Source of the DNA: Deroplatys truncata
Lineage: Eukaryota > Arthropoda > Insecta > Mantodea > Mantidae
Length of the DNA: 64,000 nt
Direction: 5' to 3'
Assembly (NCBI GenBank): GCA_030765065.1
Contig: CM060978.1
Location: 220,925,498-220,989,497, forward strand
Positions 1,276-63,592 of this stretch are shown here, piece after piece. A program made the translations under genes and the position numbers. Positions within the stretch are counted from its first letter, which is position 1. Every line of letters begins with the position of its first letter. The notes beneath the pieces were generated by a model. It was given only the letters and a program-made list of their open reading frames with translations. It had not been told where the DNA came from and did not search any database.

Positions 1276-1540
1276 GTGATAAATTTATAGAATTTATTAA
1301 AGCGTTTAAGGAACAAATGAAATGCAAAATGCATAATAGAACAGAAAAATAAATTCAAGTCACCAAACAATCCATGGCTAGCATTTATCTCTGGGTATCG
1401 AATGGTTTGGAAAGTTCAGAAGTTCAACTAACCAATATTTTTGAAATTTAGTGTTGTCATGAACAGGAGCCGTATGATATCCTTAGGAAAATCATTGTTT
1501 CTCTACAGAAAGTGGTCGTTTTGAAGGTGGATCCGTAGAT

Positions 1541-1770
1541 ATTGTTCTCTACTATTCTAAAGAAGAAGGACTATTGCATTCCACACAAGCATTCTATATG
1601 AATATTTCACTACAAATGCCAGCTTATTCCGACATTCATTGAAAACACACACGAACAGCATAATTGCGATTTTATATTTACACCAGGCATCTTTTGAGGA
1701 TGTCTTTTTTATTTTCTCAAAGGTGATTTTAATGTCCTTGACTAAAATATCAGTTGGTATGATAAAATAG
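1541..1770 (+). repeat. R1 dispersed repeat, decayed forward fragment
   Basis: A badly decayed forward R1 copy. Recognisable pieces in the right order are TTCTCTACTATTC, GGACTATTGCATTCCAC, TATTTCACTACAAATG, a very short ACACAC island followed by GAACAGCATAA, and TTTTCTCAAAGGTGATTTTAATG. Most of the rest is lost or diverged. Confidence 0.45.
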
Positions 1771-2222
1771 CTGGTTACCTACATGTACATTCATTTTTAT
1801 TGCACAGTATATGATTCGGAAGCCCTAAGATACACAACCTTAGTAATGAAAAGTCCATTAATGACGCAATATATGTCAAATTATTTTATCCTAATGTTAA
1901 CCCTTTTCGGAAACTTTGTTGTTGTATGTTTAACTTTTCCCAGGTGGAAATTTACTTTGATGCGTTAAGGCTTTAATTAATGTGCGAAATCTTTCCACCG
2001 AGCCTTAAAAATAAAAATCCACTCCGATATGAACATTTGGATTATTTTTCTGCATTTTGAATGAAGCACCTATTAGCTAATTTGAAATCGTTTCTATTCA
2101 TACATTCAAGTAATCAACGTAAAACGATTCTCTTTTGTGGAATTGGTAAACCGAGAAAGTAATGTGAGTGTTAAAGTGTTGACGAGGGGTTCTGGAAGCG
2201 TGTATACAGCATACATCAACAC
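1771..2222. other. AT-rich stretch, nothing recognised
   Basis: A short open frame starts near 1783 but has no recognisable homology or splice context. I treat it as chance. Confidence 0.35.
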
Positions 2223-2492
2223 GGGTAGCAGAGCTCGTTAAGGCACGGACTCGTGAACGCATCTGCACTTCAAATCCCTCCAGGATCGTCCTCCCTGAAT
2301 GAAGTTTTCTTCAGGTTTTCCTCAGCCCTCATAACTGGAAAATGTTGGGATGGTACCTAAACATAAGCCTGGAACATTTCCTTCCCAAATTTCCTTTTGC
2401 AGTTATTTAATTTCATGTATAATTGGTGCCCATCGCCTGTGGTGATGTATGGAGAAAGAACGGGTATAGACCTCCCTGGCATCATCAATCAT
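2223..2492 (+). mobile_element. tRNA-derived SINE
   Basis: An A-box-like element (TAGCAGAGCTCGTTAAGG, 2226-2243) is followed about 30 bases later by a B-box-like element (CTTCAAATCCC, about 2268). The body (CCAGGATCGTCCTCCCTGA, GGTTTTCCTCAG, CCTCATAACTGGAAAATG) recurs in the same order at 26508-26745 and 33918-34100. Shared order in three unlinked copies supports a SINE rather than a tRNA gene. The internal boxes would be the RNA polymerase III promoter. Ends are approximate. Confidence 0.7.
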
Positions 2493-2574
2493 TTATTATT
2501 ACCACATGTTCAATCACTTAACTTTCTTTATTATTATTGTTATTAACATATCCTCACCCTATTTTTAGCACGTC

Positions 2575-3210
2575 TTACTTTCCCTATACTTACCTATAAT
2601 AAGTAGAGGAAGTATGTATGCAAAGCATTTCATCCAAAAACTCGATATAGAAGTTTCACTGGAAGTGTACTATTTGAGGTCCCCTAAATACAACGGTTAG
2701 TTAAATCCAAAACTTGGTATTTAATTTCAGCATTCTCCAAGGATGCAACACAAAAGTTTTCAACAAAATTCTCTATCCCAAACTGCTCTTTAAATGGAAA
2801 TATTTTAGTTTACTTTTTATTTTCACAACAATGCTTTAACGATTTTGATGAAAATGCCATGCGTTTAAGATTCTTTAAACGTCTTCTTCATTCTGAATGC
2901 CTTTTATATAATTGGTAAATGGACAAAATCCTACCGCACAAAAAGTGTAGTACTCGTTAAAGAACACATTTTATGTAAAATAAATTTTGTTGCGTAGTTA
3001 ACCATTCTCGATGTGTTGCTTTGATTTTTCAAATGGCTATACTTTTTTCATATAGGAAGCCACTGTTTTTTTTCTTTCGTTGTAATGTAATGGAATTTCT
3101 AAACCATCACGTAGCTATATGCTCTTTAAAAATCTGACTATCGTTTTACCTAATATATCTACAAGAATACTTTGTGAAAGAGAGGGTAGATTTTAATTTC
3201 AGCATTTCCT
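2575..3210 (+). repeat. R1 dispersed repeat, forward copy
   Basis: It starts at CTTACTTTCCCTATACTTAC with AAGTAGAGGAAGTATG just after. It then runs through CTCGATATAGAAGTTTCACTG, a region lacking most of the TG island, TTCTCCAAGGATGCAACAC, ACGATTTTGATGAAAATGCC and AAAAAGTGTAGTACTCG. These blocks are in R1 order. The 3-prime part fades out near 3210. Confidence 0.7.
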
Positions 3211-3484
3211 TAAACTGGTAATATCCATATTTCGTGGTCATTTCATTTTATACTAAACATTGTCATTCACCTTATTTTAGTTAATCGATGTTATGAGGAA
3301 ATCTTAAGAGCATGAGTTGGGGAATGACTAATATTTTAGATAAAATTTTAGGTATTTAAAACGAGAATATAACGTATGTTTTTGCTACAAACTTACAAAG
3401 AAACACGCTTAGTTAATGTATTTCCTAAAATTATTCATGTTTTTAGGTATCATAACTATTAACCCAGGATCTTTAGTTTATTTA

Positions 3485-3560
3485 TTGCCTACCTATAGTA
3501 AGTAGAGGAAGTATTATATTCTACCCAAAATTTTATATCGAAAGTACACGTTGCCGAATC
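3485..3560 (+). repeat. R1 dispersed repeat, short 5-prime fragment
   Basis: Only the R1 5-prime terminus is present (CCTATAGTAAGTAGAGGAAG, then CTACCCAAAATTTTATATCG). The sequence then leaves the family abruptly. Confidence 0.6.
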
Positions 3561-6500
3561 TTACAACAGTAAACTTCTCCTACCATTGAATGTTCGCGGC
3601 AGTTAAGAATGGAACGTAAGAGTTACGGGAAAGTACGATGAACCACGGTCCATAAGCATGTACAAACAACAACTGACTCCGGCTAAGAAAGCTGTAGTGA
3701 TTTTATCATTGTATCTAACTTAACGTCGACAGAATAATCACTTTTTATGTGAATATGCAACGGATATATAAGAATTTCTCATTGCTAGAGAAAATCTTGT
3801 GAATGGACCATACCGGACGCTTTTTGCACTGTAACAGATTTTACACTGCACTAAAATTGGTATTAATTTAATTGTGCCTATATTATAACATTTTAAACAG
3901 ATAACTGGTGATGGTTATTTCTTGCTTACAGTATAAGAAATTAAGATCGTGAATGTACATATAGAATTAAATTTTGTGACACAGAAACTGATATCACTTA
4001 CGCTTGTGGGAATTTGAAAATCGTTCTAAAGATCACAATTTTTTGTACACACTCTACAAAATTCCGCCTAGCTTATACCGATTTCAACCAAATTTTAACA
4101 CTGTGTTGTTGATTCTTCACACTTTTACACATACAATTTTAACTCCTTGCGTTTTTTCATACCGTTTATACTACTACAAGCTAACGTTAATTCTGCATCG
4201 ATTTATTCCAACTTCAAAACGTGTAAATAAACCTTCGTAAAGTTTCAATTCCTTACGTGCAAGCCTAAAATATTTAAGTAAGTTTAAAATCATATATTAT
4301 GTATTAAATTTCAATTCCATAAGTGAAGTGGGGGATTCAATCATGCTGAAGGAGAAACTGATGGATGAAGCTATCTGACGGAGAAGTACCTACCATGTTC
4401 AATTATGATAGTATTGGTTTGACATTCGAGGCCTAATAATTTAATAACGTATTTTTCAGAACGATGGGCTTTATTGAAGCATATGATATTCGTATTAGTA
4501 GTGGATACATTCAGATATTTGCACATTTAATTTATCTCAAATATTTAAACATATTAATGAAAGATTTAAATTAAGATCTATGAGGCAAATTCAGCTAGGG
4601 AGTTAGGCTTTCCAACTTTACTGTCTACAATTAAGGTAAAAGCAGTAGCTTAGAGGTTAAGCTACTTTTAAAGGTTAGTTTCAACACACGTTGGTTTTTA
4701 ACACGTTACAACACTTCAGAAGTACGATAAATTCTCTTTTTTTACCCAAATATGTCTCAAGGGACAATTTTCCATGAAAAATAATTTTAAAATATATAAG
4801 GCATCTCCATGTAAACTCTTTGTCCTTTTACCCTGTAAATCCGGTATAATTTGTCACCTTTTCCCTTCTAACCCATTATTCACCGAATAAAAAATTCTAA
4901 GTAAACTTTTAACATGTTTGTAAATACCTCTCACGCTTAAATAGCTCTTAGCAATAAAGCGAACAGAAAAAATTGCAATCTCCTCTAAGAGCACATTAGA
5001 GGTGCTGTGTAAAAACAGTTTCTGGCCCAAAACAATCACTGCGACCTGTAACGGGAAGCAATTCGATAGCGTACCTTTAGTAAGCTCTTTTTGTAATATA
5101 GTAGGTACCTGTGGAATACCCTCATGTAATATTCAAGGAATTTTAATGGCATCTATGAATAAATAAAAATGTTCCCTGAACGTAGCTCGCAGGTAATGGG
5201 GCATAATGTATCAGTTTCGCGTGTCAGGCCACAAAGTGCACCCCGGATACAGGTCTTTGTGATCCTACTCAACTGTGCCAGCAAGCACAACTATAACAAA
5301 AACAAATGGGAAACGTTCACTAACACTGAAGAAATGTTTTGCTGATATACAGTCTTTAATTAGCTGGTGGGGTAAAATAAAAAGCCTATAGAGCAGACAA
5401 ACAATTACTCGTGCAATAGGGGATAGAATTAAAACGCAAAGCTAGCTCAGTGCTTGGAATCATTCTTAGGGTCTTACTGAGTCAGAACAGATCTTCAGGG
5501 TTTCGAAAGCTTTTGGTTTTTAATTGGCTCAGAACAAGAAATATATTTACATATTGATCTAATTTATTTTTAATGTTTATACGGAACACCTCCTAGATCA
5601 ATCGTAATGCTAATTCCATATTACTAGACACAAATGACGTGATTCATTCAAAATAGTAATCGTACCAGAAATTTGTAAATGGCAAAATGAAGCAATTATT
5701 AAAATGTCTAAGAGGAAACTAAATAGGAAATTTTACAAAGAACCGACAATTATAAGGTCTTATTACTTGACATTTCCTCCATAATTTGGTATTACTTTAT
5801 CCAAATAATGATAGGCACTTTGGTGTACAGGTGTGAACTTTGGCTCACATTTAGGGTACGTTTTTCTCTACAAATTGATATTACTGTTAAGTATGGCAGC
5901 TCCTGTGTACTCAAGCCATGTTGTTTCTATTTTTCAAATATATAAGAATTTATTTTTTCCATTTTTGCTTTGAACAGGTGAATGACATTTCTGACATAAA
6001 TGACCCATTTCTCAGAAATGGTTGAAGATCACAAATTAAACTTTATGATGATAAAAACAACTTGTCTTAAGTGCTGTTGTGGATCAACTTTACTATCAGT
6101 AACACAGTAGGTTATTTTTTTAAAATAATTTCTTACAAATATTAGTGAAAACATGGTATTACAAAATTTAGAATACAATCCCGTCTTTGTTTATAAACAA
6201 ACTTATTATATAAAGGTATATCAGTGAACTTAGACTCCATGTATCTAGACTGCGAAATATTAAATGGTTTCTGAGATAATGGGACCTGAATTTAACAGAT
6301 TTAACAATGGCGGGATAGAGCTTTTAATCTCGCTTAAACTACAATCATTATCCTTTAATCATTTATAAATTCAAAGTATATGGATCGTGTGTGGTTTACA
6401 TTTATTATAATGATGAGTGCCTTTATTTCTGTTGATAAATAAAAGTACCCAAACAGGATCGAAAAGACGTGTAAGTGGAAGTAACTCGCATTGATGGAAG

Positions 6501-8975: not shown

Positions 8976-9128
8976 AAAAGTATAGATTTTCTTAAGCTAT
9001 ACAATCTAAGGTTGTCAATCTTGACCACTTTAGGTTACCCTGTCCCATTAAGGGGCCATCATACCTAATTAAATTATATGATATTCCCGCATTTCTCTAA
9101 CAATCTGTGCGTGCATAATTTTTACATA

Positions 9129-10365
9129 CACTATGTAATCAAAAGTATCCGTACACCCCACAAACATACGTTTTTCACCCTAGGTGCATTGTGCTGCCAC
9201 CTACTGCCTGGTACTCATTATCCGCGACCTCAGTAGTCATTAGACATCGTGAAACAGCAGAATGGGACGCTCCGTGAAACTCACGGACTTCGAACGTGGT
9301 CAGGTGATTGGGTGTCATTGTGTCAGAAGTCTGTACGCGAGATTTCCACACTCCTAAACATCCCTAGGTCCACTGTTTCTGATGTGATAGTGAAGTGGTA
9401 ACATGAAGGGACATGTACAGCACAAAAGCGTACAGGCCGATCTCGTCTGTTGGCTGACAGAGACCGTCGACTTTTGAAGAGGGTCGTAAAGAGTAATAGG
9501 CAGACATTTATCCAGACCATCACACAGGAATTCCAAACTGCATCAGGATCCACTCCAAGTACTATGACAGTTAGGCGTGAGGTGAGAAACCTTGGATTCC
9601 ATGGTCGAGCGGCTGCTCATAAGCCACACATCACGCAGGAAAATGCCAAACGACACCCCGCTTGGTGTAAGGAGCGTCAACATTACACGATTGAACAGTG
9701 GCAAAACGTTGTTTTGACGAATCACGGTACACAATGTGGCGATCCATGGTAGGGTTGGGTATGGCGAATGCCCGGTGAACGTTATCTGCCAGCGTGTGTA
9801 GTGCCAACAGTGAAATTCGGAGGTGGTGGTATTATGGTGTGGTCGTGTTTTTCCTGGAAGGGACTTGCACCCCTTATTTTTTGCGTGGCACGATCACAGT
9901 GCAAACCTAAATGGATATTTTAAGCACCTTCTTGCTTCCCACTGTTGAAGAGCAATTCGGGGTTGCGATTGCATCTTTCAACACGATTGAGCACCTGCTC
10001 ATACTGCACGGGCTGTGGCGGAATGATTACACGACAATACCGTCCCTGTAATGGACTGGCCTGCACAGAGTCCTGACTTGAATCCTATAGAACACCTTTG
10101 GGATGTTTTGGAACCCCGACTTCGTGCCAGGCCTCAGCGACCTACATCGATACCACTCCTCAGTTCCGCACTCCGTGAAGAATGGGCTGCCCTTCCCCAA
10201 GAAGCCTTCCGGCACCTGATTGAAAGTATGCCTGCCAGAGTGAACGGTGTCGTCAAGGTTATGGGTGGGCCAACACCATATTGACTTCCAGTATTATCGA
10301 TGGAGGGCGTCACGAACTTGTACTCATTTTCAGTCAGGTGTCCGGACACTTTTGATCACGTAGTG
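9129..10365 (+). mobile_element. Tc1-like DNA transposon, copy 1
   Basis: A complete-length but dead Tc1 element of 1,237 bp. The inverted termini begin CACTATGTAATCAAAAGTAT (from 9129) and end TTTTGATCACGTAGTG (to 10365). TA dinucleotides flank it at 9127-9128 and 10366-10367, the expected duplicated target. The transposase relic fills the centre. A second copy of the same family lies in opposite orientation at 38381-39592. Confidence 0.93.
9262..10284 (+). pseudogene. Tc1-like transposase (DD34E), inactivated
   Basis: The start is ATG at 9262 (MGRSVKLTDFERGQVIGC), the canonical Tc1 N-terminus, and the natural stop follows GGPTPY at 10282-10284. The span of 1,023 nt equals the usual length of about 340 codons. 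Domains in order: helix-turn-helix DNA binding (STLLNIPRSTVSDVIVKW region, then DRDRRLLKRVVKSNRQT). Catalytic block one is FDESRYTMWRS (Asp codon 9716-9718, out of frame with its upstream part). Block two is CIFQHD followed by a stop where the family has an Arg or similar. Block three is MDWPAQSPDLNPIEHLWDVL. Counting through the stops, 34 residues separate the second Asp from the Glu, so the class is DD34E. At least two frame changes and three in-frame stops are present. It cannot supply active protein. Confidence 0.9.
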
Positions 10366-13835: not shown

Positions 13836-13917
13836 ACCTGGCCAGAAAGGTTTTGGAAGAACTGCAACTTGCTATCGCATAAACAGACTTTTGCACACTA
13901 CAAATGCTACCATTACA

Positions 13918-14804
13918 TTTTTACTTTCTCTACTACGTATAGTAAGTAGGGGAAGTATTGCATTCCACCCAAAAATTCGATACCGAGATTTCACCGGAAA
14001 TACATGTTTTGAGACCTCCTGAATCCAAAAAAAGCATTTTTGGAAACATGTCCGTGTGTGTGTCTGTGTGTCTGTGTGTGTGTGTGTCTGTGTGTGTGTC
14101 TGTGTGTGTGTGAACAGCATAACTCAAAAACGAACAGTCGGATAAGCACCAAACTTGGTATTTAGGTTCAGTATCTTCCAGAGATGCGACACGAAGGTTT
14201 TCAAGAAAATCCCCCCACCCCAAACTACCCTTTACATGGAAGATTTTTCGAAAATTTTAATTTTCTCAAAAATGGCTCTAACGATTTTGATGAAAATATC
14301 ATATGTTTAAGATAATGTCATGGGAAATGAAATGTATATCTCGAATTTTCTGGGAATGTCTCCAAAAGTATTCTTTATTGTGAACAACGTTTGCATAACT
14401 GGTAAACCATAAGAGATACACAAAATGTTACTACACAAAAAGTGTAGATCGCGTTAAAATACACAACTTATGTCATATACATTTCTTTTGTTGAGTGAAC
14501 CGTTTTGGAGATATTGCTTGTTATTTCCTTAAATTTTCCAATACTTATACTTTTTCTCAAATTCGTTATTCATTTTTTTTATGTCCTGGACATGCAAAGA
14601 GAATGGAATGCACCACATAGCAACCAGCGTTAAAATATTTGACTATCGCTTAAAAGCTACCATATTCCCCTTGCATCTACAAGAAAATTACCAATAAGAT
14701 TGACATCTCGATATCTCGATTAACATGAAGCATATGGAGAATAGGCGTTTGTAAAAATAGATTGTACAATAGTAGAGAAAGTCATGTGAGTGTAACACAT
14801 CAGA
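13918..14804 (+). mobile_element. R1 dispersed repeat, best full-length copy (Helentron-like or MITE)
   Basis: The clearest R1 copy, about 887 bp with no coding capacity. A perfect 13-bp inverted repeat, ACTTTCTCTACTA (13923-13935) and TAGTAGAGAAAGT (14770-14782), lies near the ends. Just past the second arm, ATGTG and CACAT around a 7-base loop (14784-14800) can form a hairpin, and the end is followed by a T run. A TG/TGTC microsatellite occupies 14044-14111. Order: termini, AAAAATTCGATACCGAGATT, CATTTTTGGAAACATGTCCG, island, GAACAGCATAACTCAAAAAC, CAGAGATGCGACACG, ACGATTTTGATGAAAAT, ACAAAAAGTGTAGATCGCG. Subterminal inverted repeats, an end hairpin and an internal microsatellite are features of Helentron-derived non-autonomous elements. 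A TIR-type MITE is the alternative. Confidence 0.8.
14044..14111 (+). repeat. TG/TGTC microsatellite inside R1
   Basis: About 68 bp of GTGTG with regularly spaced TCTG interruptions. It sits at the position that is expanded to 15.6 kb in the R1 copy beginning at 46556. Confidence 0.9.
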
Positions 14805-14808
14805 TTTT

Positions 14809-46555: not shown

Positions 46556-47186
46556 AATAGTCACATGACTTTCCCTACTCATACTTCAATACTATTCTTA
46601 CAGAACACAATTCATGCTAATCGAGATAAAGATTCGCAGAAACAATTTATTACATATTTTCTTGTAGGTACAAGGGGAGTAAGGGAATACAATCGGCCTA
46701 AGCTACAGTCAAATACGAAAAATATTTTGAGAGCTGGCCGTTGTGTGATTGGTTTGAAATTCCTTTCTCCTAGCATGACCATGAAAAAAGATGAATAATA
46801 TTTCTCCATTTGAGAAGAGCATAATTATTAAAAAAAATTTAGCCAATAAAAAGGAATATCTCGAAAATGATTAACTCCACAAGAAATGCATTTTCATAAA
46901 CTGAGATATACACTTCTTGTGTAGTGAGATTTTTCCTCATCAATTCAGCAATTGTGCATAATCATTCAGAATATAGAGGACTTCAGAGGCTGTGCCCAGA
47001 AAATTACCTTAATGAAAATCGTTAGAGCCATTTTTTAAAACATTAAAAAGATAAAAAAAACTACAATGTAAAGAGTACATCGGGATAGGGAGATTTTTCG
47101 AGAATCTTCGTGTTTAATCCTTGAAAGATCCTGAACATAAATACCAAGTTTGTATAAAGTCACTTTTCGTTTTTGAGCTATGCTGT
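46556..47186 (-). repeat. R1 dispersed repeat flank, left of giant array
   Basis: Reverse R1 sequence: AGTCACATGACTTTCCCTAC at the outer end, TTGTAGGTACAAGGGGAGTA, ATCTCGAAAATGATTAAC, AAATCGTTAGAGCCATTTTT and AATACCAAGTTTG. Then TTTTCGTTTTTGAGCTATGC leads into TGTTCACACACTC, the point where other copies enter their CA/TG island. This is one half of the R1 copy split by the array. Confidence 0.85.
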
Positions 47187-47928
47187 TCACACACTCACTC
47201 TCTCACAAACTCTCTCTCACAAACACACTCTCTCACTCACACACAAACTCTCTCACACACACTCTCTCTCATACACACTCTCTTACTCACACACACACTC
47301 TCTCACTCACACACACTCTCTCTCATACACACACTCTCTCAAAAACATACACATACTCCCACTCACACACATACTCTCACTCAACATACTCTCTCTCACT
47401 CACACATATTCTCTCACACTCACACATACTCTCTCCACACACACATTCGCTCTCACTCAACATACTCTCTCTCAATCACACACATACTGTCTCTCACTCA
47501 CACACATGCTCTCTCTTACAGACAATCTCTTACTCACACACACTCTCTCTCAATGACACTTACTCTCTCACTCACACACATACTCTCTCTCACTCACCCA
47601 CATACTCTCTCACACACACTCTCTCTCAATGACACATACTCTCTCACTCACACACATACTCTCTCTCACTCACACTCTCTCTCACACAAAATCTCTCACT
47701 CACACACATACACTCTCTCACTCACACACACGCTCTCTCTCACACACAAGCTCTCTCATACACACATTCTCTCTCACTAACACACATACTCTCTCTCACT
47801 CACACACTCTCTCTCAATGACACATACTCTCTCACTCAAACACATACTCTCTTTCACACACTCTCACTCACACGCACACTCTCTCTCACTCTCACACACA
47901 CTCTCCCTCACTCACACACACTCTCACA

Positions 47929-50900
47929 CACTACACACATACTCTCTCTCACCACTATCTCTCACTCACACACATACTCTCTCTCACTCACACACATACA
48001 CTCTCACTCACACACATACTCTCTCTCACACACACGTACTCTCTCTCACACACAATCTCACTCACGCACACACTCTCTCTCACACACAATCTCACTCGGA
48101 CACACACACTCTCTCTCACTCACACACATACTATCTCTCACTCACTCAAAAACTCTTTCACACACACTCTCTCTCACTCACACACACTCTCTCTCACTCA
48201 CACTCTCTCTCACTCACACACATACTCTCTCTCACACACACTCTCTCCTACTCACACACATTCTCTCTTTCCCTCACACACATACTCTCTCTCACTCACA
48301 CACACGCTCTCACTCACACACAATCTCTTACTCACACACACTCTCTCTCACTCACACACTCTCTCTCAATGACACATACTCTCTCACTCACACACATACC
48401 GCTCTCACACACTCACTCACTCACATACTCTCTCACACACACTCTCTCTCAATGACACATACTTTCTCACTCATACACATACTCTCTCTCACACACACTC
48501 TATCTCACACACAATCTCTCACTCACACACATACTCTCTCTCACTCACACACACGCTCTCTCTCTCAAAAACAATCTCTTACACACACACACTCTCTCAT
48601 ACACACACTCTCTCACTCACACACATACTCGCTCTCACTCACACACACTCTCTCTCACTCACACACATGCTCTCTCACTCACACACATACTCTCTCTCAC
48701 ACACACGTACTCTCTCTCACACACACTCTCACTCACGCAAACACTCTCTCACACACAATCTCACTCACGCACACACTCTCTCTCACTCACACACATACTC
48801 TCTCACTCACTCACATACTCTTTCACACACACTCTCTCTCACTCACACACACTCTCTCTCTCTCACACACACTCTCTCCTACTCACACACATTCTCTCTC
48901 TCCCTCACACACATACTCTCTCTCACTCACACACACGCGCTCACTCTACACAATCTCTTACTCACACACACTCTCTCTCACTCACACACTCTCTCTCAAT
49001 GACACATACTCTCTCACTCACACACATACTCGCTCTCACACACTCACTCACTCACATACTCTCTCACACACACTCTCTCTCAATGACACATACTTTCTCA
49101 CTCACACACATACTCTGTATCACACACACTCTATCTCACACACAATCTCTCACTCACACACATAATCTCTCTCACTCACACACACGCTCTCTCTCTCAAA
49201 AACAATCTCTTACTCACACACACTCTCTTTCTCATACACACACTCTCTCACTCAAACACATACTCGCTCTCACTCACACACATACTCGCTCTCACTCACA
49301 CACACTCTCTCTCACTCACACACATACTCTCTCACTCACACACATACTCTCTCTCACACACACCTACTCTCTCTCACACACACTCTCACTCACGCACATA
49401 CTCTCCCTCACACACAATCTCAGTCACGCACACACTCTCTCTCACTCACACACATACTCTCTCACTCACTCAAATACTCTTTCACACACACTCTCTCTCA
49501 CTCACACACACTCTCTCTCACTCACACTCTTTCTCACTCACACACATACTCTCTCTCACACACACTCTCTCCTACTCACACACATTCTCTCTCTCCCTCA
49601 CAAACATACTCTCTCTCACTCACACACACGCTCTCACTCACACACAATCTCTTACTCACACACACTCTCTCTCACTCACACACTCTCTCGCAATGACACA
49701 TACTCTCTCACTCACACACATACCGCTCTCACACACTCATTCACTCACATACTCTCTCACACACAATCTCTCTCAATGACACATACTTTCTCACTCACAC
49801 ACATACTCTCTCTCACACACACTCTATCTCACACACAATCTCTCTCTCACACACATACTCTCTCTCACTCACACACACGCTCTCTCTCTCTCAAAAACAA
49901 TCTCTTACACACACACACTCTCTCTCATACACACACTCTCTCACTCACACACATACTCGCTCTCACTCACACACACTCTCTCTCACTCACACACATACTC
50001 TCTCACTCACACACATACTCTCTCTCACACACACGTACTCTCTCTCACACACACTCTCACTCACGCAAACACCCTCTCTCACACACAATCTCACTCACGC
50101 ACACACTCTCGCTCACTCACACACATACTCTCTCACTCACTCACATACTCTTTCACACACACTCTCTCTCACTCACACACACTCTCTCTCTCTCGCACAC
50201 ACTCTCTCGTACTCACACACATTCTCTCTCTCCCTCACACACATAGTCTCTCTCACTCACACACACGCGCTCACTCACACACAATCTCTTACTCACACAC
50301 ACTCTCTCTCACTCACACACTCTCTCTCAATGACACATACTCTCTCACTCACACACATACTCGCTCTCACACACTCACTCACTCACATACTCTCTCACAC
50401 ACACTCTCTCTCAATGACACATACTTTCTCACTCACACACATACTCTCTATCACACACACTCTATCTCACACACAATCTCTCACTCACACACATAATCTC
50501 TCTCACTCACACACACGTTCTCTCTCTCAAAAACAATCTCTTACTCACACACTCTCTCTCATACACACACTCTCTCACTCACACACATACTCGCTCTCAG
50601 TCACACACACACTCGCTCTCACTCACACACACTCTCTCTCACTCACACACATAGTCTCTCACTCACACACATACTCTCTCACACACACACCTACTCTCTC
50701 TCACACACACTCTCACTCACGCACACACTCTCTCTCACTCACACACATACTCTCTCACTCACTCACATACTCTTTCACACACACTCTCTCTCACTCACAC
50801 ACACTCTCTCTCACTCACACTCTCTCTCACTCACACACATACCCTCCTTCACACACACTCTCTCCTACTCACACACATTCTCTCTCTCCCTCACACGCAT

Positions 50901-52278
50901 ACTCTCTCTCACTCACACACACGCTCTCACTCACACGCAATCTCTTACTCACACACACTCTCTCTCACTCACACACTCTCTCTCAATGACACATACTCTC
51001 TCACTCACACATACTCGCTCTCACACACTCACTCACTCACATACTCTCTCACACACACTCTCTCTCAATGACACATACTTTCTCACTCACACACATACTC
51101 TCTCTCAGACACACGCTATCTCACACACAATCTCTCACTCACACACATACTCTCTCTCACTCACACACACACGCTCTCTCTCTCAAAAACAATCTCTTAC
51201 TCACACACACTCTCTCTCATACACACACTCTCTCACTCACACACACACTCTCTCACTCACACACATACACGCTCTCACTCACACACACTCTCTCTCACTC
51301 ACACACATACTCTCTCACTCACACACATACTCTATCTAACACACACGTACTCTCTCTCACACACACTCTCACTCACGCACACAATCTCACTCACGCACAC
51401 ACTCTCTCTCACTCACACACACACTCTCTCTCACTCACACTCTCTCCTACTCATACACATACTCTCTCTCACACACACTCTCTCCTACTCACACACATTC
51501 TCTCTCTCCCTCACACACATACTCTCTCTAACTCACACACACGCTCTCACTCACACACAATCTCTTACTCACACACACTCTCTCTCACTCACACATACTC
51601 TCTCACTCACGCACAAACTCGCTCTCACACACTCACTCACTCACATACTCTCTCTCACACACTCTCTCTCAATGACACATACTTTCTCACTCACACACAT
51701 ACTCTCTCTCACACATACTCTATCTCACACACAATCTCTCACTCACACACATACTCTCTCTCACTCACACACACGCTCTCTCTCTCAAAAACAATCCCTT
51801 AATCACACACACTCTCTCTCATACACACACTCTCTCACTAACACACATACTCTCTCTCACTCACACACTCTCTCTCAATGACACATACTCTCTCACTCAC
51901 ACACATACTCTCTTTCACAAACACTCTCACTCACGCACACACTCTCTCTCACTCACACACATACTCTCTCTCACTCACACATACTCTCTCACTCACACAC
52001 ATAATCTCTCTCACACACACCCTCTCTCACTCACACATACTCTCTCCACACACACACACACTCGCTCTCACTCAACATACTCTCTCTCAATCACACACAT
52101 ACTCTCTCTCACTCACACACATGCTCTGTCTCACAACAATCTCTTACTCACACACACTCTCTCTCAATGACACATACTCTCTCACTCACACACATACTCT
52201 CTTTCACACACTCTCACACACGCACACAATCTCTCTCACTCTCACACACACTCTCCCTCACTCACACACACTCTCACA
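47929..52278. repeat. Array higher-order unit 1 (4,350 bp)
   Basis: Defined from one CACTACACACAT landmark (47929) to the next (52279). Each landmark is followed by ACTCTCTCTCACCACT. Confidence 0.75.
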
Positions 52279-55200
52279 CACTACACACATACTCTCTCTC
52301 ACCACTCTCTCTCACTCACACACATACTCTCTCTCACTCACACACATACACTCTCACTCACACACATACTCTCTCTCACACACACGTACTCTCTCTCACA
52401 CACAATCTCACTCACGCACACACTCTCTCTCACACACAATCTCACTCGGACACACACACTCTCTCTCACTCACACACCTACTATTTCTCACTCACTCAAA
52501 TACTCTTTCACACACACTCTCTCTCACTCACACACACTCTCTCTCACTCACACTCTCTCTCACTCACACACATACTCTCTCTCACACACACTCTCTCCTA
52601 CTCACACACATTCTCTCTTTCCCTCACACACATACTCTCTCTCACTCACACACACACGCTCTCACTCACACACAATCTCTTACTCACACACACTCTCTCT
52701 CACTCACACACTCTCTCTCAATGACACATACTCTCTCACTCACACACATACCGCTCTCACACACTCACTCACTCACATACTCTCTCACACACACTCTCTC
52801 TCAATGACACATACTTTCTCACTCATACACATACTCTCTCTCACACACACTCTATCTCACACACAATCTCTCACTCACACACATACTCTCTCTCACTCAC
52901 ACACACGCTCTCTCTCTCAAAAACAATCTCTTACACACACACACTCTCTCATAAACACACTCTCTCACTCACACACATACTCGCTCTCACTCACACACAC
53001 TCTCTCTCACTCACACACATACTCTCTCACTCACACACATACTCTCTCTCACACACACGTACTCTCTCTCACACACACTTTCACTCACGCAAACACTCTC
53101 TCACACACAATCTCACTCACGCACACACTCTCTCTCACTCACACACATACTCTCTCACTCACTCACATACTCTTTCACACACACTCTCTCTCACTCACAC
53201 ACACTCTCTCTCTCTCACACACACTCTCTCCTACTCACACACATTCTCTCTCTCCCTCACACACATATTCTCTCTCACTCACACACACGCGCTCACTCAC
53301 ACACAATCTCTTACTCACACACACTCTCTCTCACTCACACACTCTCTCTCAATGACACATACTCTCTCACTCACACACATACTCGCTCTCACACACTCAC
53401 TCACTCACATGCTCTCTCACACACACTCTCTCTCAATGACACATACTTTCTCACTCACACACATACTCTGTATCACACACACTCTATCTCACACACAATC
53501 TCTCACTCACACACATAATCTCTCTCACTCACACACACGCTCTCTCTCTCAAAAACAATCTCTTACTCACACACACTCTCTTTCTCATACACACACTCTC
53601 TCACTCAAACACATACTCGCTCTCACTCACACACATACTCGCTCTCACTCACACACACTCTCTCTCACTCACACACATACTCTCTCACTCACACACATAC
53701 TCTCTCTCACACACACCTACTCTCTCTCACACACACTCTCACTCACGCACATACTCTCCCTCACACACAATCTCAGTCACGCACACACTCTCTCTCACTC
53801 ACACACATACTCTCTCACTCACTCAAATACTCTTTCACACACACTCTCTCTCACTCACACACACTCTCTCTCACTCACACTCTTTCTCACTCACACACAT
53901 ACTCTCTCTCACACACACTCTCTCCTACTCACACACATTCTCTCTCTCCCTCACACACATACTCTCTCTCACTCACACACACGCTCTCACTCACACACAA
54001 TCTCTTACTCACACACACTCTCTCTCACTCACACACTCTCTCTCAATGACACATACTCTCTCACTCACACACATACCGCTCTCACACACTCATTCACTCA
54101 CATACTCTCTCACACACAATCTCTCTCAATGACACATACTTTCTCACTCACACACATACTCTCTCTCACACACACTCTATGTCACACACAATCTCTCACT
54201 CACCCACATACTCTCTCTCACTCACACACACGCTCTCTCTCTCAAAAACAATCTCTTACACACACACTCTCTCTCATACACACACTCTCTCACTCACACA
54301 CATACTCGCTCTCACTCACACACACTCTCTCTCACTCACACACATACTCTCTCACTCACACACATACTCTCTCTCACACACACGTACTCTCTCTCACACA
54401 CTCTCACTCACGCAAACACTCTCTCTCACACACAATCTCTCACTCACACACATACTCTCTCTCACTCACACACACGCTCTCTCTCTCTCAAAAACAATCT
54501 CTTACACACACACTCTCTCTCATACACACACTCTCTCACTCACACACATACTCGCTCTCACTCACACACACTCTCTCTCACTCACACACATACTCTCTCA
54601 CTCACACACATACTCTCTCTCACACACACGTACTCTCTCTCACACACACTCTCACTCACGCAAACACTCTCTCTCACACACAATCTCACTCACGCACACA
54701 CTCTCGCTCACTCACACACATACTCTATCACTCACTCACATACTCTTTCACACACACTCTCTCTCACTCACACACACTCTCTCTCTCTCGCACACACTCT
54801 CTCCTACTCACACACATTCTCTCTCTCCCTCACACACATAGTCTCTCTCACTCACACACACGCGCTCACTCACACACAATCTCTTACTCACACACACTCT
54901 CTCTCACTCACACACTCTCTCTCAATGACACATACTCTCTCACTCACACACATACTCGCTCTCACACACTCACTCACGCACATACTCTCTCACACACACT
55001 CTCTCTCAATGACACATACTTTCTCACTCACACACATACTCTCTATCACACACACTCTATCTCACACACAATCTCTCACTCAGACACATAATCTCTCTCA
55101 CTCACACACACGTTCTCTCTCTCAAAAACAATCTCTTACTCACACACTCTCTCTCATACACACACTCTCTCACTCACACACATACTCGCTCTCAGTCACA

Positions 55201-57195
55201 CACACACTCGCTCTCACTCACACACACTCACTCTCACTCACACACATACTCTCTCACTCACACACATACTCTCTCACACACACACCTACTCTCTCTCACA
55301 CACACTCTCACTCACGCACATACTCTATCTCACACACAATCTCAGTCACGCACACACTCTCTCTCACTCACACACATACTCTCTCACTCACTCACATACT
55401 CTTTCACACGCACTCTCTCTCACTCACACACACTCTCTCTCACTCCCACACATACTCTCTCTCACACACACTCTCTCCTACTCACACACATTCTCTCTCT
55501 CCCTCACACGCATACTCTCTCTCACTCACACACACGCTCTCACTCACACGCAATCTCTTACTCACACACACTCTCTCTCACTCACACACTCTCTCTCAAT
55601 GACACATACTCTCTCTCACACACATACTCGCTCTCACACACTCACTCACTCACATACTCTCTCACACACACTCTCTCTCAATGACACATACTTTCTCACT
55701 CACACACATACTCTCTCAGACACACGCTATCTCACACACAATCTCTCACTCACACACATACTCTCTCTCACTCACACACACACGCTCTCTCTCTCAAAAA
55801 CAATCTCTTACTCACACACACTCTCTCTCATACACACACTCTCTCACTCACACACACACTCTCTCACTCACACACATACTCGCTCTCACTCACACACTAT
55901 CTCTCTCACTCACACACATACTCTCTCACTCACACACATACTCTCTCTCACACACACGTACTCTCTCTCACACACACTCTCACTCACGCACACAATCTCA
56001 CTCACGCACACACTCTCTCTCACTCACACTAACACTCTCTCTCACTCACACTCTCTCCTACTCATACACATACTCTCTCTCACACACACTCTCTCCTACT
56101 CACACACATTCTCTCTCTCCCTCACACACATACTCTCTCTCACTCACACACACGCTCTCACTCACACACAATCTCTCACTCACATATACTCTCTCAGTCA
56201 CGCACATACTCGCTCTCACACACTCACTCACTCACATACTCTCTCTCACACACTCTCTCTCAATGACACATACTTTCTCACTCACACACATACTCTCTCT
56301 CACACACACTCTATCTCACACACAATCTCTCACTCACACACATACTCTCTCTCACTCACACACACGCTCTCTCTCTCTCAAAAACAATCTCTTAATCACA
56401 CACACTCTCTCTCATACACACACTCTCTCACTAACACACATACTCTCTCTCACTCACACACTCTCTCTCAATGACACATACTCTCTCACTCACACACATA
56501 CTCTCTTTCACAAACACTCTCACTCACGCACACACTCTCTCTCACTCAAACACATACTCTCTCTCACTCACACACATACTCTCTCTCACTCACACATACT
56601 CTCTCACTCACACACATAATCTCTCTCACACACACCCTCTCTCACTCACACATACTCTCTCCACACACACACACACTCTCGCTCTCACACAACATACTCT
56701 CTCTCAATCACACACATACTCTCTCTCACTCACACACATGCTCTGTCTCACAACAATCTCTTACTCACACACACTCTCTCTCAATGACACATACTCTCTC
56801 ACTCACACACATACTCTCTCTCACTCACCCACATACTCTCTCACACACACTCTCTCTCAATGACACATACTCTCTCACTCACACACATACTCTCTCTCAC
56901 TCACACTCTCTCACACACAAAATCTCTCACTCACACACCATCTCTCTCTCACTCACACACACGCTCTCTCTCACACACAATCTCTTAATCACACACAAGC
57001 TCTCTCATACACACATTCTCTCTCATTAACACACATACTCTCTCTCAATTACACATACTCTCTCACTCAAACACATACTCTCTTTCACACACTCTCACTC
57101 ACGCACACACTCTCTCTCACTCACACACATACTCTCTCTCACTCACTCACATACTCTCTCACACACACTCTCTTTCACTCACACACACTCTCTCA
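52279..57195. repeat. Array higher-order unit 2 (4,917 bp)
   Basis: From the landmark at 52279 to CACTACACAATACTC at 57196. The paired AATGACACATAC sub-landmarks at 52804 and 53352 repeat the 48452/48999 pair with almost the same spacing (548 versus 547). Confidence 0.75.
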
Positions 57196-60100
57196 CACTA
57201 CACAATACTCTCTCTCACCACTCCCTCTCACTCACACACATACTCTCTCTCACTCACACACACTCTCTCTCGCTCTCACACTTACTCTCTCACTCACACA
57301 CATACTCTCTCTCACACACACGTACTCTCTCTCACACACACTCTCTCTCACTCACACACATACTATCTTTCACTCACTCAAATACTCTTTCACACACACT
57401 CTCTCTCACTCACACACACTCTCTCTCACTCACACTCTCTCTCACTCACACACATACTCTCTCTCACACACACTCTCTCCTACTCACACACATTCTCTCT
57501 TTCCCTCACACACATACTCTCTCTCACTCACACACACGCTCTCACTCACACACAATCTCTTACTCACACACACTCTCTCTCACTCACACACTCTCTCTCA
57601 ATGACACATACTCTCTCACTCACACACATACCGCTCTCACACACTCACTCACTCACATACTCTCTCACACACACTCTCTCTCAATGACACATACTTTCTC
57701 ACTCATACACATACTCTCTCTCACACACACTCTATCTCACACACAATCTCTCACTCACACACATACTCTCTCTCACTCACACACACGCTCTCTCTCTCAA
57801 AAACAATCTCTTACACACACACACTCTCTCATACACACACTCTCTCACTCACACACATACTCGCTCTCACTCACACACACTCTCTCTCACTCACACACAT
57901 ACTCTCTCACTCACACACATACTCTCTCTCACACACACGTACTCTCTCTCACACACACTCTCACTCACGCAAACACTCTCTCACACACAATCTCACTCAC
58001 GCACACACTCTCTCTCACTCACACACATACTCTCTCACTCACTCACATACTCTTTCACACACACTCTCTCTCACTCACACACACTCTCTCTCTCTCACAC
58101 ACACTCTCTCCTACTCACACACATTCTCTCTCTCCCTCACACACATACTCTCTCTCACTCACACACACGCGCTCACTCACACACAATCTCTTACTCACAC
58201 ACACTCTCTCTCACTCACACACTCTCTCTCAATGACACATACTCTCTCACTCACACACATACTCGCTCTCACACACTCACTCACTCACATACTCTCTCAC
58301 ACACACTCTCTCTCAATGACACATACTTTCACACTCACACACATACTCTGTATCACACACACTCTATCTCACACACAATCTCTCACTCACACACATAATC
58401 TCTCTCACTCACACACACGCTCTCTCTCTCAAAAACAATCTCTTACTCACACACACTCTCTTTCTCATGCACACACTCTCTCACTCAAACACATACTCGC
58501 TCTCACTCACACACATACTCGCTCTCACTCACACACACTCTCTCTCACTCACACACATACTCTCTCACTCACACACATACTCTCTCTCACACACACCTAC
58601 TCTCTCTCACACACACTCTCACTCACGCACATACTCTCCCTCACACACAATCTCAGTCACGCACACACTCTCTCTCACTCACACACATACTCTCTCACTC
58701 ACTCAAATACTCTTTCACACACACTCTCTCTCACTCACACACACTCTCTCTCACTCACACTCTTTCTCACTCACACACATACTCTCTCTCACACACACTC
58801 TCTCCTACTCACACACATTCTCTCTCTCCCTCACACACATACTCTCTCTCACTCACACACACGCTCTCACTCACACACAATCTCTTACTCACACACACTC
58901 TCTCTCACTCACACACTCTCTCTCAATGACACATACTCTCTCACTCACACACATACCGCTCTCACACACTCATTCACTCACATACTCTCTCACACACAAT
59001 CTCTCTCAATGACACATACTTTCTCACTCACACACATACTCTCTCTCACACACACTCTATCTCACACACAATATCTCACTCACCCACATACTCTCTCTCA
59101 CTCACACACACGCTCTCTCTCTCTCAAAAACAATCTCTTACACACACACACTCTCTCTCATACACACACTCTCTCACTCACACACATACTCGCTCTCACT
59201 CACACACACTCTCTCTCACTCACACACATACTCTCTCACTCACACACATACTCTCTCTCACATACACGTACTCTCTCTCACACACACTCTCACTCACGCA
59301 AACACTCTCTCTCATACACAATCTCTCACTCACACACATACTCTCTCTCACTCACACACACGCTCTCTGTCTCTCAAAAACAATCTCTTACACACACACA
59401 CTCTCTCTCATACACACACTCTCTCACTCACATAACATACTCGCTCTCACTCACACACACTCTCTCTCACTCACACACATACTCTCTCACTCACACACAT
59501 ACTCTCTCTCACACACACGTACTCTCTCTCACACACACTCTCACTCACGCAAACACTCTCTCTCACACACAATCTCACTCACGCACACACTCTCGCTCAC
59601 TCACACACATACTCTCTCACTCACTCACATACTCTTTCACACACACTCTCTCTCACTCACACACACTCTCTCTCTCTCGCACACACTCTCTCCTACTCAC
59701 ACACATTCTCTCTCTCCCTCACACACATAGTCTCTCTCACTCACACACACGCGCTCACTCACACACAATCTCTTACTCACACACACTCTCTCTCACTCAC
59801 ACACTCTCTCTCAATGACACATACTCTCTCACTCACACACATACTCGCTCTCACACACTCACTCACTCACATACTCTCTCACACACACTCTCTCTCAATG
59901 ACACATACTTTCTCACTCACACACATACTCTCTCTCACACACACGTACTCTCTCTCACACACACTCTCACTCACGCAAACACTCTCTCTCACACACAATC
60001 TCACTCACGCACACACTCTCGCTCACTCACACACATACTCTCTCACTCACTCACATACTCTTTCACACACAATCTCTTACTCACACACACTCTCTCTCAC

Positions 60101-62410
60101 TCACACACTCTCTCTCAATGACACATACTCTCTCACTCACACACATACTCGCTCTCACACACTCACTCACTCACATACTCTCTCACACACACCCTCTCTC
60201 AATGACACATACTTTCTCACTCACACACATACTCTCTATCACACACACTCTATCTCACACACAATCTCTCACTCACACACATAATCTCTCTCACTCACAC
60301 ACACGTTCTCTCTCTCAAAAACAATCTCTTACTCACACACTCTCTCTCATACACACACTCTCCTACTCACACACATACTCGCTCTCAGTCACACACACAC
60401 TCGCTCTCACTCACACACACTCTCTCTCACTCACACACATACTCTCTCACTCACACACATACTCTCTCACACACACACCTACTCTCTCTCACACACACTC
60501 TCACTCACGCACATACTCTATCTCACACACAATCTCAGTCACGCACACACTCTCTCTCACTCACACACATACTCTCTCACTCACTCACATACTCTTTCAC
60601 ACGCACTCTCTCTCACTCACACACACTCTCTCTCACTCCCACACATACTCTCTCTCACACACACTCTCTCCTACTCACACACATTCTCTCTCTCCCTCAC
60701 ACGCATACTCTCTCTCACTCACACACACGCTCTCACTCACACGCAATCTCTTACTCACACACACTCTCTCTCACTCACACACTCTCTCTCAATGACACAT
60801 ACTCTCTCACTCACACACATACTCGCTCTCACACACTCACTCTCTCACATACTCTCTCACACACACTCTCTCTCAATGACACATACTTTCTCACTCACAC
60901 ACATACTCTCTCAGACACACGCTATCTCACACACAATCTCTCACTCACACACATACTCTCTCTCACTCACACACACACGGTCTCTCTCTCAAAAACAATC
61001 TCTTACTCACACACACTCTCTCTCATACACACACTCTCTCACTCACACACACACTCTCTCACTCACACACATACTCGCTCTCACTCACACACACTCTCTC
61101 TCACTCACACACATACTCTCTCACTCACACACATACTCTCTCTCACACACACGTACTCTCTCTCACACACACTCTCACTCACGCACACAATCTCACTCAC
61201 GCACACACTCTCTCTCACTCACACACACACTCTCTCTCACTCACACTCTCTCCTACTCATACACATACTCTCTCTCACACACACTCTCTCCTACTCACAC
61301 ACATTCTCTCTCTCCCTCACACACATACTCTCTCTCACTCACACACACGCTCTCACTCACACACAATCTCTTACTCACACACACTCTCTCTCACTCACAC
61401 ATACTCTCTCAGTCACGCACATACTCGCTCTCACACACTCACTCACTCACATACTCTCTCTCACACACTCTCTCTCAATGACACATACTTTCTCACTCAC
61501 ACACATACTCTCTCTCACACACACTCTATCTCACACACAATATCTCACTCACACACATACTCTCTCTCACTCACACACACGCTCTCTCTCTCTCAAAAAC
61601 AATCTCTTAATCACACACACTCTCTCTCATACACACACTCTCTCACTAACACACATACTCTCTCTCACTCACACACTCTCTCTCAATGACACATACTCTC
61701 TCACTCACACACATACTCTCTTTCACAAACACTCTCACTCACGCACACACTCTCTCTCACTCAAACACATACTCTCTCTCACTCACACACATACTCTCTC
61801 TCACTCACACATACTCTCTCACTCACACACATAATCTCTCTCACACACACCCTCTCTCACTCACACATACTCTCTCCACACACACACACACTCTCGCTCT
61901 CACTCAACATACTCTCTCTCAATCACACGCATACTCTCTCTCACTCACACACATGCTCTGTCTCACAACAATCTCTTACTCACACACACTCTCTCTCAAT
62001 GACACATACTCTCTCTCTCACACACATAATCTCTCTCACTCACCCACATACTCTCTCACACACACTCTCTCTCAATGACACATACTCTCTCACTCACACA
62101 CATACTCTCTCTCACTCACACTCTCTCACACACAAAATCTCTCACTCACACACCATCTCTCTCTCACTCACACACACGCTCTCTCTCACACACAATCTCT
62201 TAATCACACACAAGCTCTCTCATACACACATTCTCTCTCATTAACACACATACTCTCTCTCAATTACACATACTCTCTCACTCAAACACATACTCTCTTT
62301 CACACACTCTCACTCACGCACACACTCTCTCTCACTCACACACATACTCTCTCTCACTCACTCACATACTCTCTCACACACACTCTCTTTCACTCACACA
62401 CACTCTCTCA
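57196..62410. repeat. Array higher-order unit 3 (5,215 bp)
   Basis: From the landmark at 57196 to that at 62411. The sub-landmark pair 57684/58232 again has spacing 548. Extra sub-units make it longer than unit 1. Confidence 0.75.
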
Positions 62411-62746
62411 CACTACACAATACTCTCTCTCACCACTCTCTCTCACTCACACACATACTCTCTCTCACTCACACACACTCTCTCTCGCTCTCACACTTAC
62501 TCTCTCACTCACACACATACTCTCTCTCACACACACGTACTCTCTCTCACACACACTCTCACTCTCGCACACACTCTCTCTCTCACACACAATCTCACTC
62601 ACGCACACACTCTCTCTCACTCACACACACACACTCTGTCTCACACACACACTCTCACTCACACACACACTCTCTCACTCACACACACACTCTCTCACTC
62701 ACACACATACTCGTTTACACACACTCTCTCTCGCTCTCACACATAC

Positions 62747-62868
62747 CTGGACTTTTTTTAATTTGTTTGGCTCAGATATTCTGAAAGTGTTCATTTCCGG
62801 TAAAACCTCGGTATCGAATTTTTGGCTGGAATACAATATTTTCTCAACTTACTGTAGGTAAGTAGTAG
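62747..62868 (-). repeat. R1 dispersed repeat flank, right of giant array
   Basis: CATTTCCGGTAAAACCTCGG, TATCGAATTTTTGGCTGG and AATACAATATTTTCTC, ending TGTAGGTAAGTAGTAG. This is the R1 5-prime end in reverse, completing the copy begun at 46556. Confidence 0.85.
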
Positions 62869-63475
62869 ACAAATCTGATGTGTTGTTTTCACATGCCTTT
62901 CTCTACTCACTATTGTACAAACTATTCTTACGAACTCTTCCTCTATTTACTTCATGTTAGTGGAGGTAAAATAATATTTTTTGAGTAGTAAGGTTTTTGT
63001 CTATCTCTCGAAGGTTTACCAGTTATACAAACGTCATTCAGAATGCGGAGTATTCCACAGGCAATTTCCAGAAAATTCAAGATATACATGAAGATATCTT
63101 ATACTATTTTAAACAAAATAGTTATAGGCATTTTTTAGAGAATAAAAAGTTTCGAAAAATTTTTCCTTGTAAAGGGTAGTTTAGGTGGAGGAATGTTTTT
63201 GAAGCTCTTCATGTACACATCTTTGGAATATATTGGACCGGAATACCAAGTTTGGTATTTATCCGACTTATTGTTTTTGAGTTATGCTGCTCACAAACAC
63301 ATAGACAGATAGACAGACAGACAAACAGACACCACACACAGACATGGTTCCAAAAAAGCTTTATTTTGATTAAGGGCGCCTCAAAATACGTATTTCCGGT
63401 GAAATGTCGGTATCAATTTTTCGTAGACTGCAGTACTTCCCCTATTTATATATGTAGTTGAGAAAGTAAAAATGC
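62869..63475 (-). repeat. R1 dispersed repeat, reverse copy, head-to-tail with previous
   Basis: Starts AATCTGATGTGTTGTTTTCA with TGCCTTTCTCTACTC. It runs through AAGGTTTACCAGTTATAC, AATTCAAGATATACATGAAG, TTGTTTTTGAGTTATGCTGC and a CAGA/CA island (63291-63345), to TTTCCGGTGAAATGTCGG and GTAGTTGAGAAAGTAAAA. Part of the 3-prime half is missing. Confidence 0.85.
63291..63345. repeat. ACAG microsatellite inside R1
   Basis: CACATAGACAGATAGACAGA followed by more GACA units, then CACACA. On the R1 sense strand this is TGTC repeats mixed with TG, like the island at 14044-14111. Confidence 0.9.
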
Positions 63476-63592
63476 TATTTTTGTGGTTCGGGGTTTCAAG
63501 GCATTTGTTTCCAGTAAAATATTGACATCAAATTTTTGGGTGGAATACAATGCTTCCGCTGCTTACTATACGTAGTAGAGAAAGTAAAAGCA
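63476..63592 (-). repeat. R1 dispersed repeat, 5-prime end fragment, reverse
   Basis: TTGTTTCCAGTAAAATATTG, CATCAAATTTTTGGGTGGAA and TACTATACGTAGTAGAGAAA, closing with GTAAAAG. Only the terminal 110 or so bases of R1. Confidence 0.8.

What the first reader, a model, noticed from the sequence alone, without database searches (positions are those of the whole stretch)
46556..62868. A 15.6-kb simple-sequence array born from the internal microsatellite of one transposable-element copy
Seen: the array begins at the point where the reverse R1 sequence reads TTTTTGAGCTATGCTGTTCA. In copies at 63250-63345 and 13918-14804 that same point is followed or preceded by a TG/TGTC island of tens of bases. 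It ends where R1 resumes with its 5-prime end. One R1 copy is thus split by an island more than 200 times longer than in its relatives. Known: Drosophila mini-me and DINE-1/HINE elements carry internal microsatellites or short tandem repeats that can seed satellites. Inference: this locus is an extreme case of a mobile element seeding a satellite-scale array.
Basis: partly seen in the sequence, partly recalled or inferred. Interest (0 to 1): 0.85.

Follow-up and report, generated by a model that had tools for sequence, protein, structure and literature searches.

The report
Runaway microsatellite inside one transposon copy
One old copy of a common DINE-1-like mobile element holds a 15.6-kb CA/CT simple-sequence array exactly where the relatives examined carry a few tens of bases; it looks like a satellite growing in place by local duplication, a known kind of event in an extreme form.

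Summary
The array (about 47188-62745) sits between the two borders of the element's short internal microsatellite. The flanks join into one R1 copy, and both arms are about equally diverged from ten other copies. In 49 of 52 measurable junctions elsewhere the island is 7-65 bp. Read in reverse, R1 has the DINE-1/HINE plan, with its island where DINE-1 has its GTCY microsatellite.

First, the array is mainly three tandem blocks of about 4.4, 4.9 and 5.2 kb, mostly 97-100% alike, with diverged edges; larger units are more alike than smaller ones. Two array words occur 21 and 25 times in the genome, all here, so it grew locally. Second, five other CT/CA loci, up to about 3 kb, lie outside R1 islands. 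Runaway CT/CA growth is therefore not peculiar to R1, and capture of a foreign tract is not excluded.

Verdict: new member of a known kind (satellite growth from an array inside a transposable element). Long reads were not available; other R1 copies with long islands were not excluded.

The parts
46556..47187 (-). Left arm of the R1 (DINE-1/HINE-like) copy; in DINE-1 orientation its 3' part, with a mutated 3' subTIR (AGTAGGGAAAGT)
47188..62745 (.). CA/CT compound simple-sequence array, 15.6 kb, nearly G-free on the + strand
47188..47800 (.). Left edge of the array, diverged (best match elsewhere in the array 0.838 and 0.915 for the first two 300-bp tiles)
47801..52150 (.). Block A, about 4.35 kb
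   Evidence: boundaries inferred from lag 4350
52151..57030 (.). Block B, about 4.88 kb
   Evidence: boundaries inferred from lag 4880
57031..62560 (.). Block C, about 5.2 kb plus the start of a further repeat
   Evidence: lag 5215; boundaries inferred
62561..62745 (.). Right edge of the array (tile from 62487: best match 0.883)
62746..62868 (-). Right arm of the same R1 copy; in DINE-1 orientation its 5' end, with a decayed 5' subTIR
62869..63590 (-). Next R1 copy, directly head to tail, with a 46-bp island from 63294
13916..14805 (+). R1 copy in the opposite orientation with a 57-bp TG/TGTC island

Best explanation
R1 is an abundant non-autonomous element of DINE-1/HINE (Helentron-associated) build that carries a short microsatellite about 135-140 bp from its 5' end. 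In one old copy that island was, or became, a CA/CT compound tract. It lengthened by slippage into imperfect units of about 18-22 bp. Local duplication by unequal exchange or an equivalent repair process then made units of roughly 0.6-0.7 and 1.3 kb, and last of all three tandem blocks of 4.4-5.2 kb. Shown: the position, one element copy around it, the layered internal duplication, and the privacy of two of the array's words. Inferred: that the R1 island was the seed, that slippage came first, and that unequal exchange was the last step. No function is proposed; growth is most simply neutral.
For: Both borders are the element's own island borders, and the flanks form one copy with similar divergence in both arms. 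Four other R1 copies start their islands with TTCACACACTCTCTC or CTCACACACTCTCTC and run for about 35-55 bp. Thirteen places have CTCTC..CACACACACGGAC at the other border. A 39-mer and a 35-mer of the array occur 21 and 25 times in 4.29 Gb, all here on one strand. Tiles of 300 bp match the array at lag 4200-5400 with median identity 0.987, at 9000-10000 with 0.974, at 1100-1700 with 0.931, at 400-1000 with 0.896; order-6 and order-10 Markov copies of the array give 0.800 and 0.832. Edges are more diverged than most of the interior, as expected of exchange-driven arrays. The position is unlikely by accident: R1 is 15% of the window outside the array and the island about 20 of 850 bp, so well under 1% of the sequence (my estimate, made after the fact).
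Against: The commonest island form in the sample is CAGACA-like, not CT/CA, and only 53 GACA remain in the array. Five CT/CA loci found without an R1 anchor are not in R1 islands, so such arrays arise without this seed. Four inner tiles have best matches of only 0.889-0.969. The lag bins differ in width, which favours the widest (4200-5400) a little. No long reads.
Confidence: 0.74

Rival explanations
1. Capture: a break in the CACA island of this R1 copy was repaired from another CT/CA array, and the captured tract then expanded.
For: CT/CA arrays of about 0.6 to 3 kb exist elsewhere outside R1 islands. L113 carries a CT/CA tract of about 135 bp in an R1 core where about 150 bp of R1 are missing.
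Against: Two words of this array are private to it, and the generic probes that hit the other arrays do not hit this one, so no donor is visible; CT/CA islands with the same start exist in other R1 copies; no R1 sequence is lost at the join.
Confidence: 0.15
2. Assembly artefact: two different R1 copies joined through collapsed or expanded simple sequence, or the three blocks multiplied by the assembler.
For: Three blocks mostly 97-100% alike in low-complexity DNA are hard to assemble; no reads could be examined.
Against: Both flanks make one copy with similar divergence; the two array words tested occur nowhere else; blocks differ by substitutions and by indels of about 240-300 bp.
Confidence: 0.07
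3. The element transposed with an already long array (central-repeat HINE), and this copy is the survivor.
For: HINE elements elsewhere carry satellite-like central repeats (PMC7492417 passages).
Against: The two array words tested occur at no other place; the copy is old (arms 63-74% identical to others) while the blocks are young (long ungapped segments 98-99.6%); the array is at the microsatellite of the first block, not at the place of central repeats.
Confidence: 0.04

Closest known systems
DINE-1 / mini-me / HINE elements (Helentron-associated); passages of PMC2374699 and PMC4067079 seen
   Same: subTIRs of about 12 bp, inverted repeat beside the 5' subTIR, GTCY-type microsatellite near the 5' end, stem-loop after the 3' subTIR, T-rich borders, high copy number
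   Different: Their microsatellite is described as short or of variable length; no kilobase island appears in the passages seen. The stem here is 5 bp, theirs 7-11
Cg_HINE elements of the Pacific oyster; passages of PMC7492417 seen
   Same: HINE build, short GTCY-like microsatellite, link between HINE and satellite DNA
   Different: There the arrays are central repeats spread with the element; here one copy expanded at the microsatellite
Ogre-derived satellites of Lathyrus; abstract and passages of PMC7004042 seen
   Same: Short tandem arrays inside dispersed elements that occasionally expand into long arrays; higher-order periodicities in an expanded satellite
   Different: LTR retrotransposon, expansion mainly in primary constrictions; here a rolling-circle-type element and one locus, chromosomal setting unknown
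Routes from transposable elements to satellites reviewed in PMC12628747; passages seen
   Same: Slippage followed by unequal exchange; expansion of arrays inside elements, with Helitron/Helentron named as a common example
   Different: Review; no single-copy CT/CA case with nested kilobase blocks in the passages seen

Membership tests
DINE-1/HINE (non-autonomous Helentron) | Subterminal inverted repeats of 11-15 bp | tested here: met
   ACTTTCTCTACT / AGTAGAGAAAGT, perfect complements; the 5' one with a run of at least 4 T directly outside in 11 of 20 copies, the 3' one with a stem-loop-like tail in 8 of 20, both in 6 of 20 (one of these with TTTTA); many copies are truncated or tandem (counted by eye)
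DINE-1/HINE (non-autonomous Helentron) | Short stem-loop just 3' of the 3' subTIR | tested here: met
   ATGTG..CACAT or CGTGT..ACACG intact in 4 of the 8 copies with the 3' tail (L086, L096, L104, L100), mutated in 4 and in the window copy; 5-bp stem, shorter than the 7-11 reported for DINE-1
DINE-1/HINE (non-autonomous Helentron) | GTCY-type microsatellite in the 5' conserved block | tested here: met
   Island of TGTC/TG type; 49 of 52 measured junctions at 7-65 bp
DINE-1/HINE (non-autonomous Helentron) | Insertion in T-rich sites without target duplication | tested here: inconclusive
   T-runs outside ends; no empty sites compared
DINE-1/HINE (non-autonomous Helentron) | Autonomous Helentron partner with the same ends | not tested
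   At least 152 Helitron_like_N (PF14214) matches in the genome (150 of 291 candidates scored); their ends were not read
Satellite DNA from an array inside a transposable element | Long array bounded by the two parts of one element copy at its internal array | tested here: met
Satellite DNA from an array inside a transposable element | Expanded array present at several loci as a family | tested here: not met
   Two array words (39 and 35 letters) private to this locus: an expanded array, not a satellite family

The most novel reading that the evidence does not exclude
This is a satellite caught at birth: one copy of a very abundant HINE family has turned its first-block microsatellite, not its central repeats, into a private 15.6-kb array with nested layers (about 20 bp, 0.6-0.7 kb, 1.3 kb, 4.4-5.2 kb), the largest the youngest. 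The same genome holds independent CT/CA arrays at other seeds, so it tolerates or promotes runaway CT/CA growth in general.
Probability: 0.5. Interest if true: 0.5.

Novelty: new member of a known kind. Interest (0 to 1): 0.42.

Why it matters
The step from a few dozen bases inside a mobile element to a satellite-sized array is usually inferred after the evidence is gone. Here the element's borders are intact, the array words tested are private to one locus, and its layers can be ordered by divergence, so growth by slippage and then by exchange can be tested directly at one place in related individuals or species. The family is large enough that the whole distribution of island lengths, and the odds of a runaway, could be measured in one genome.

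Tried and rejected
Rfam scan of the window: no match at gathering score among 4227 families. ORFs of 150 aa or more in the window: 21 of 22 lie in or reach into the array and are what stop-poor simple sequence gives by itself; not pursued as genes. The composition scan for array ends overshoots for L106 and misplaces L113; for L106 I use the base counts. The idea that R1 islands are the main source of CT/CA arrays found no support: none of five loci found without an R1 anchor is in an island; five loci are few, and the control (the probe read backwards) also had 4 hits, so the probe is a generic one. Central-repeat origin: judged unlikely by position. Literature searches; no title or abstract start in these capped listings described a kilobase CT/CA array inside one DINE-1/HINE copy, and only open-licence PMC papers are held. 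Wilder and Hollocher (mini-me) and Scalvenzi and Pollet were seen only as mentioned or cited in passages of PMC2374699 and PMC12628747.

Full report
WHAT IS THERE. The window is part of contig C4 of a 4.29-Gb genome in 818 contigs. From about 47188 to 62745 the + strand is almost free of G (272 of 15,559 bases; C 6941, A 4357, T 3989), with CA/AC and CT/TC making up most dinucleotides. Units of 18 and 20 bp score best in Tandem Repeats Finder.

ONE ELEMENT AROUND IT. Joined in a script they align end to end with ten other copies, and nothing of the element is missing or doubled at the join; there are ordinary indels inside the arms, and the last bases of the right arm are decayed. The arms are about equally far from the same references (left 0.641-0.731, right 0.628-0.744). 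Eight of these references were picked from 20 fetched copies because they looked complete; the other two are window copies, one of them partial. The next R1 copy follows directly head to tail at 62869.

HOW LONG IS THE ISLAND ELSEWHERE. I read junctions in 53 fetched loci (L001-L013, L026-L065) and the window. Leaving out this array there are 63 distinct junctions. The right anchor was found in 52: 49 lie at 7-65 bp, including three window copies, and three at 332, 448 and 486, where an unrelated insertion or another element intervenes. The median of the 49 non-window values, the three long ones included, is 19. Eleven had no recognisable anchor within 900 bp and show short islands in print. 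The sample is biased towards copies with one exact 20-mer on the first 84 Mb of C1, and four copies were chosen because they carry CT/CA. Other copies with long islands are therefore not excluded.

WHAT R1 IS. Read in the reverse direction, R1 begins with a T-run and ACTTTCTCTACT, followed by an inverted repeat (ACGTATAGTAAGTAG). The TG/TGTC island comes about 135-140 bp from that end (123 in the window copy). The element ends with AGTAGAGAAAGT, a small stem-loop (ATGTG..CACAT, in one copy CGTGT..ACACG) and a T-run. This is the plan given for DINE-1 and HINE in the passages I saw of PMC4067079 and PMC2374699, including the microsatellite in the first conserved block. The genome has at least 152 matches to Helitron_like_N, but I did not read whether any shares R1's ends.

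HOW MANY COPIES. R1 is about 15% of the window outside the array. One exact 21-letter form of its island edge occurs 91,749 plus 90,975 times in the genome. These are not all separate insertions: 30 of the first 100 places listed are units of one tandem array with a period of about 3.4 kb. The other 70 lie between 0.19 and 14.3 Mb of C1, about 5 per Mb; if that were typical it would mean some 21,000 dispersed copies with this exact word, and much of the total would be in tandem arrays. The number of dispersed R1 copies, most of which carry mutated words, is thus large but not known.

INSIDE THE ARRAY. It is not a plain microsatellite. Long near-exact copies occur at lags of 4350, 4880 and 5215 bp and at lags of 9.2-9.8 kb. 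They define three tandem blocks, roughly 47801-52150, 52151-57030 and 57031-62560. Of 52 tiles of 300 bp, 45 find a partner at 0.97-1.00 identity. The two left-most (0.838, 0.915), the right-most (0.883) and four inner ones (0.889, 0.890, 0.904, 0.969) do not. By lag class, median best identity is 0.987 at 4.2-5.4 kb, 0.974 at 9-10 kb, 0.931 at 1.1-1.7 kb and 0.896 at 0.4-1.0 kb. Order-6 and order-10 Markov imitations of the array give 0.800 and 0.832. Ungapped identity at a lag of 20 is 0.70. So, up to the block, the larger the unit, the more alike the copies, which I read as the larger the younger. Two words of the array, of 39 and 35 letters, occur 21 and 25 times in the genome, all in this array and on one strand. 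The array grew where it stands.

WHERE THE SEED CAME FROM. Four other R1 copies have CT/CA islands with the same start. So CT/CA islands exist in R1 but are rare beside CAGACA ones. A generic 35-mer (4 hits, its backward control also 4) and a 31-mer (3 hits, control 1) lead to five other CT/CA loci, and neither probe hits this array. L106 has about 3 kb starting at an R1 end, the one with GTAGAGAAAGT. L108 has about 1.6 kb, roughly 100 bp from such an R1 end. L107 (0.6 kb) and L109 (1.35 kb) show no R1 homology beyond the simple repeat. L113 has about 135 bp in an R1 core where some 150 bp of R1 are missing. None is in an R1 island. CT/CA growth therefore does not need the R1 island, and a captured tract remains possible here. 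The exact fit of both borders to an island that makes up well under 1% of the sequence (my estimate from 15% and 20 of 850 bp) still favours the island as seed.

MECHANISM. Most likely: an old copy with a CA/CT island; slippage to hundreds of bases; point changes that marked the units; exchange between misaligned units giving sub-blocks and finally three blocks of 4.4-5.2 kb. Position, privacy of the tested words and layering are shown; the order of slippage and exchange is inferred from divergence. I see no sign of function. Of the 22 long ORFs of the window, 21 lie in or reach into the array, which is what stop-poor sequence gives.

KNOWN OR NEW. Expansion of short arrays inside elements into long ones is established: Ogre elements in Lathyrus (PMC7004042, abstract and passages) and, in a review, Helitron/Helentron elements (PMC12628747, passages). 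Oyster HINE elements carry satellite-like repeats (PMC7492417, passages). What is unusual is the site (the first-block microsatellite), the size against a median of 19 bp, the privacy of the array, and the readable layering. I file it as a new member of a known kind.

LIMITS. No reads, no second individual, no name for the species. The assembly could still be wrong in block number; I put an artefact at about 0.07.

Noticed in passing
G000:C1:19849-122107 (outside the window; places listed): The R1 island-edge 21-mer recurs 30 times on the - strand at a spacing of about 3,408 bp (one spacing doubled): a tandem array of about 102 kb whose 3.4-kb unit holds a piece of R1, about 20 kb from the start of contig C1. 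The genome-wide total of 182,724 hits, far above the density of the other listed places, hints that such R1-bearing satellites may be extensive. Sequence not read.
   Followed up: no
L106 with L110 (C2:144902581-144908600), joined positions about 980-4200: A CT/CA (GA/GT on the + strand) array of about 3 kb begins where an R1 copy would end with GTAGAGAAAGT; its GAGA core may come from that tail.
   Followed up: partly
L113 (C12:115687839), locus about 1412-1570: A CT/CA tract of about 135 bp inside an R1 core with about 150 bp of R1 missing, a possible repair-type insertion.
   Followed up: partly
window 62860-62875 and L089: R1 copies directly head to tail sharing one short A/T run, as rolling-circle elements often show.
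   Followed up: partly
L029, just after the island: An unrelated insertion that looks like a tRNA-derived short element sits at the R1 island border (the likeness is from memory).
   Followed up: no
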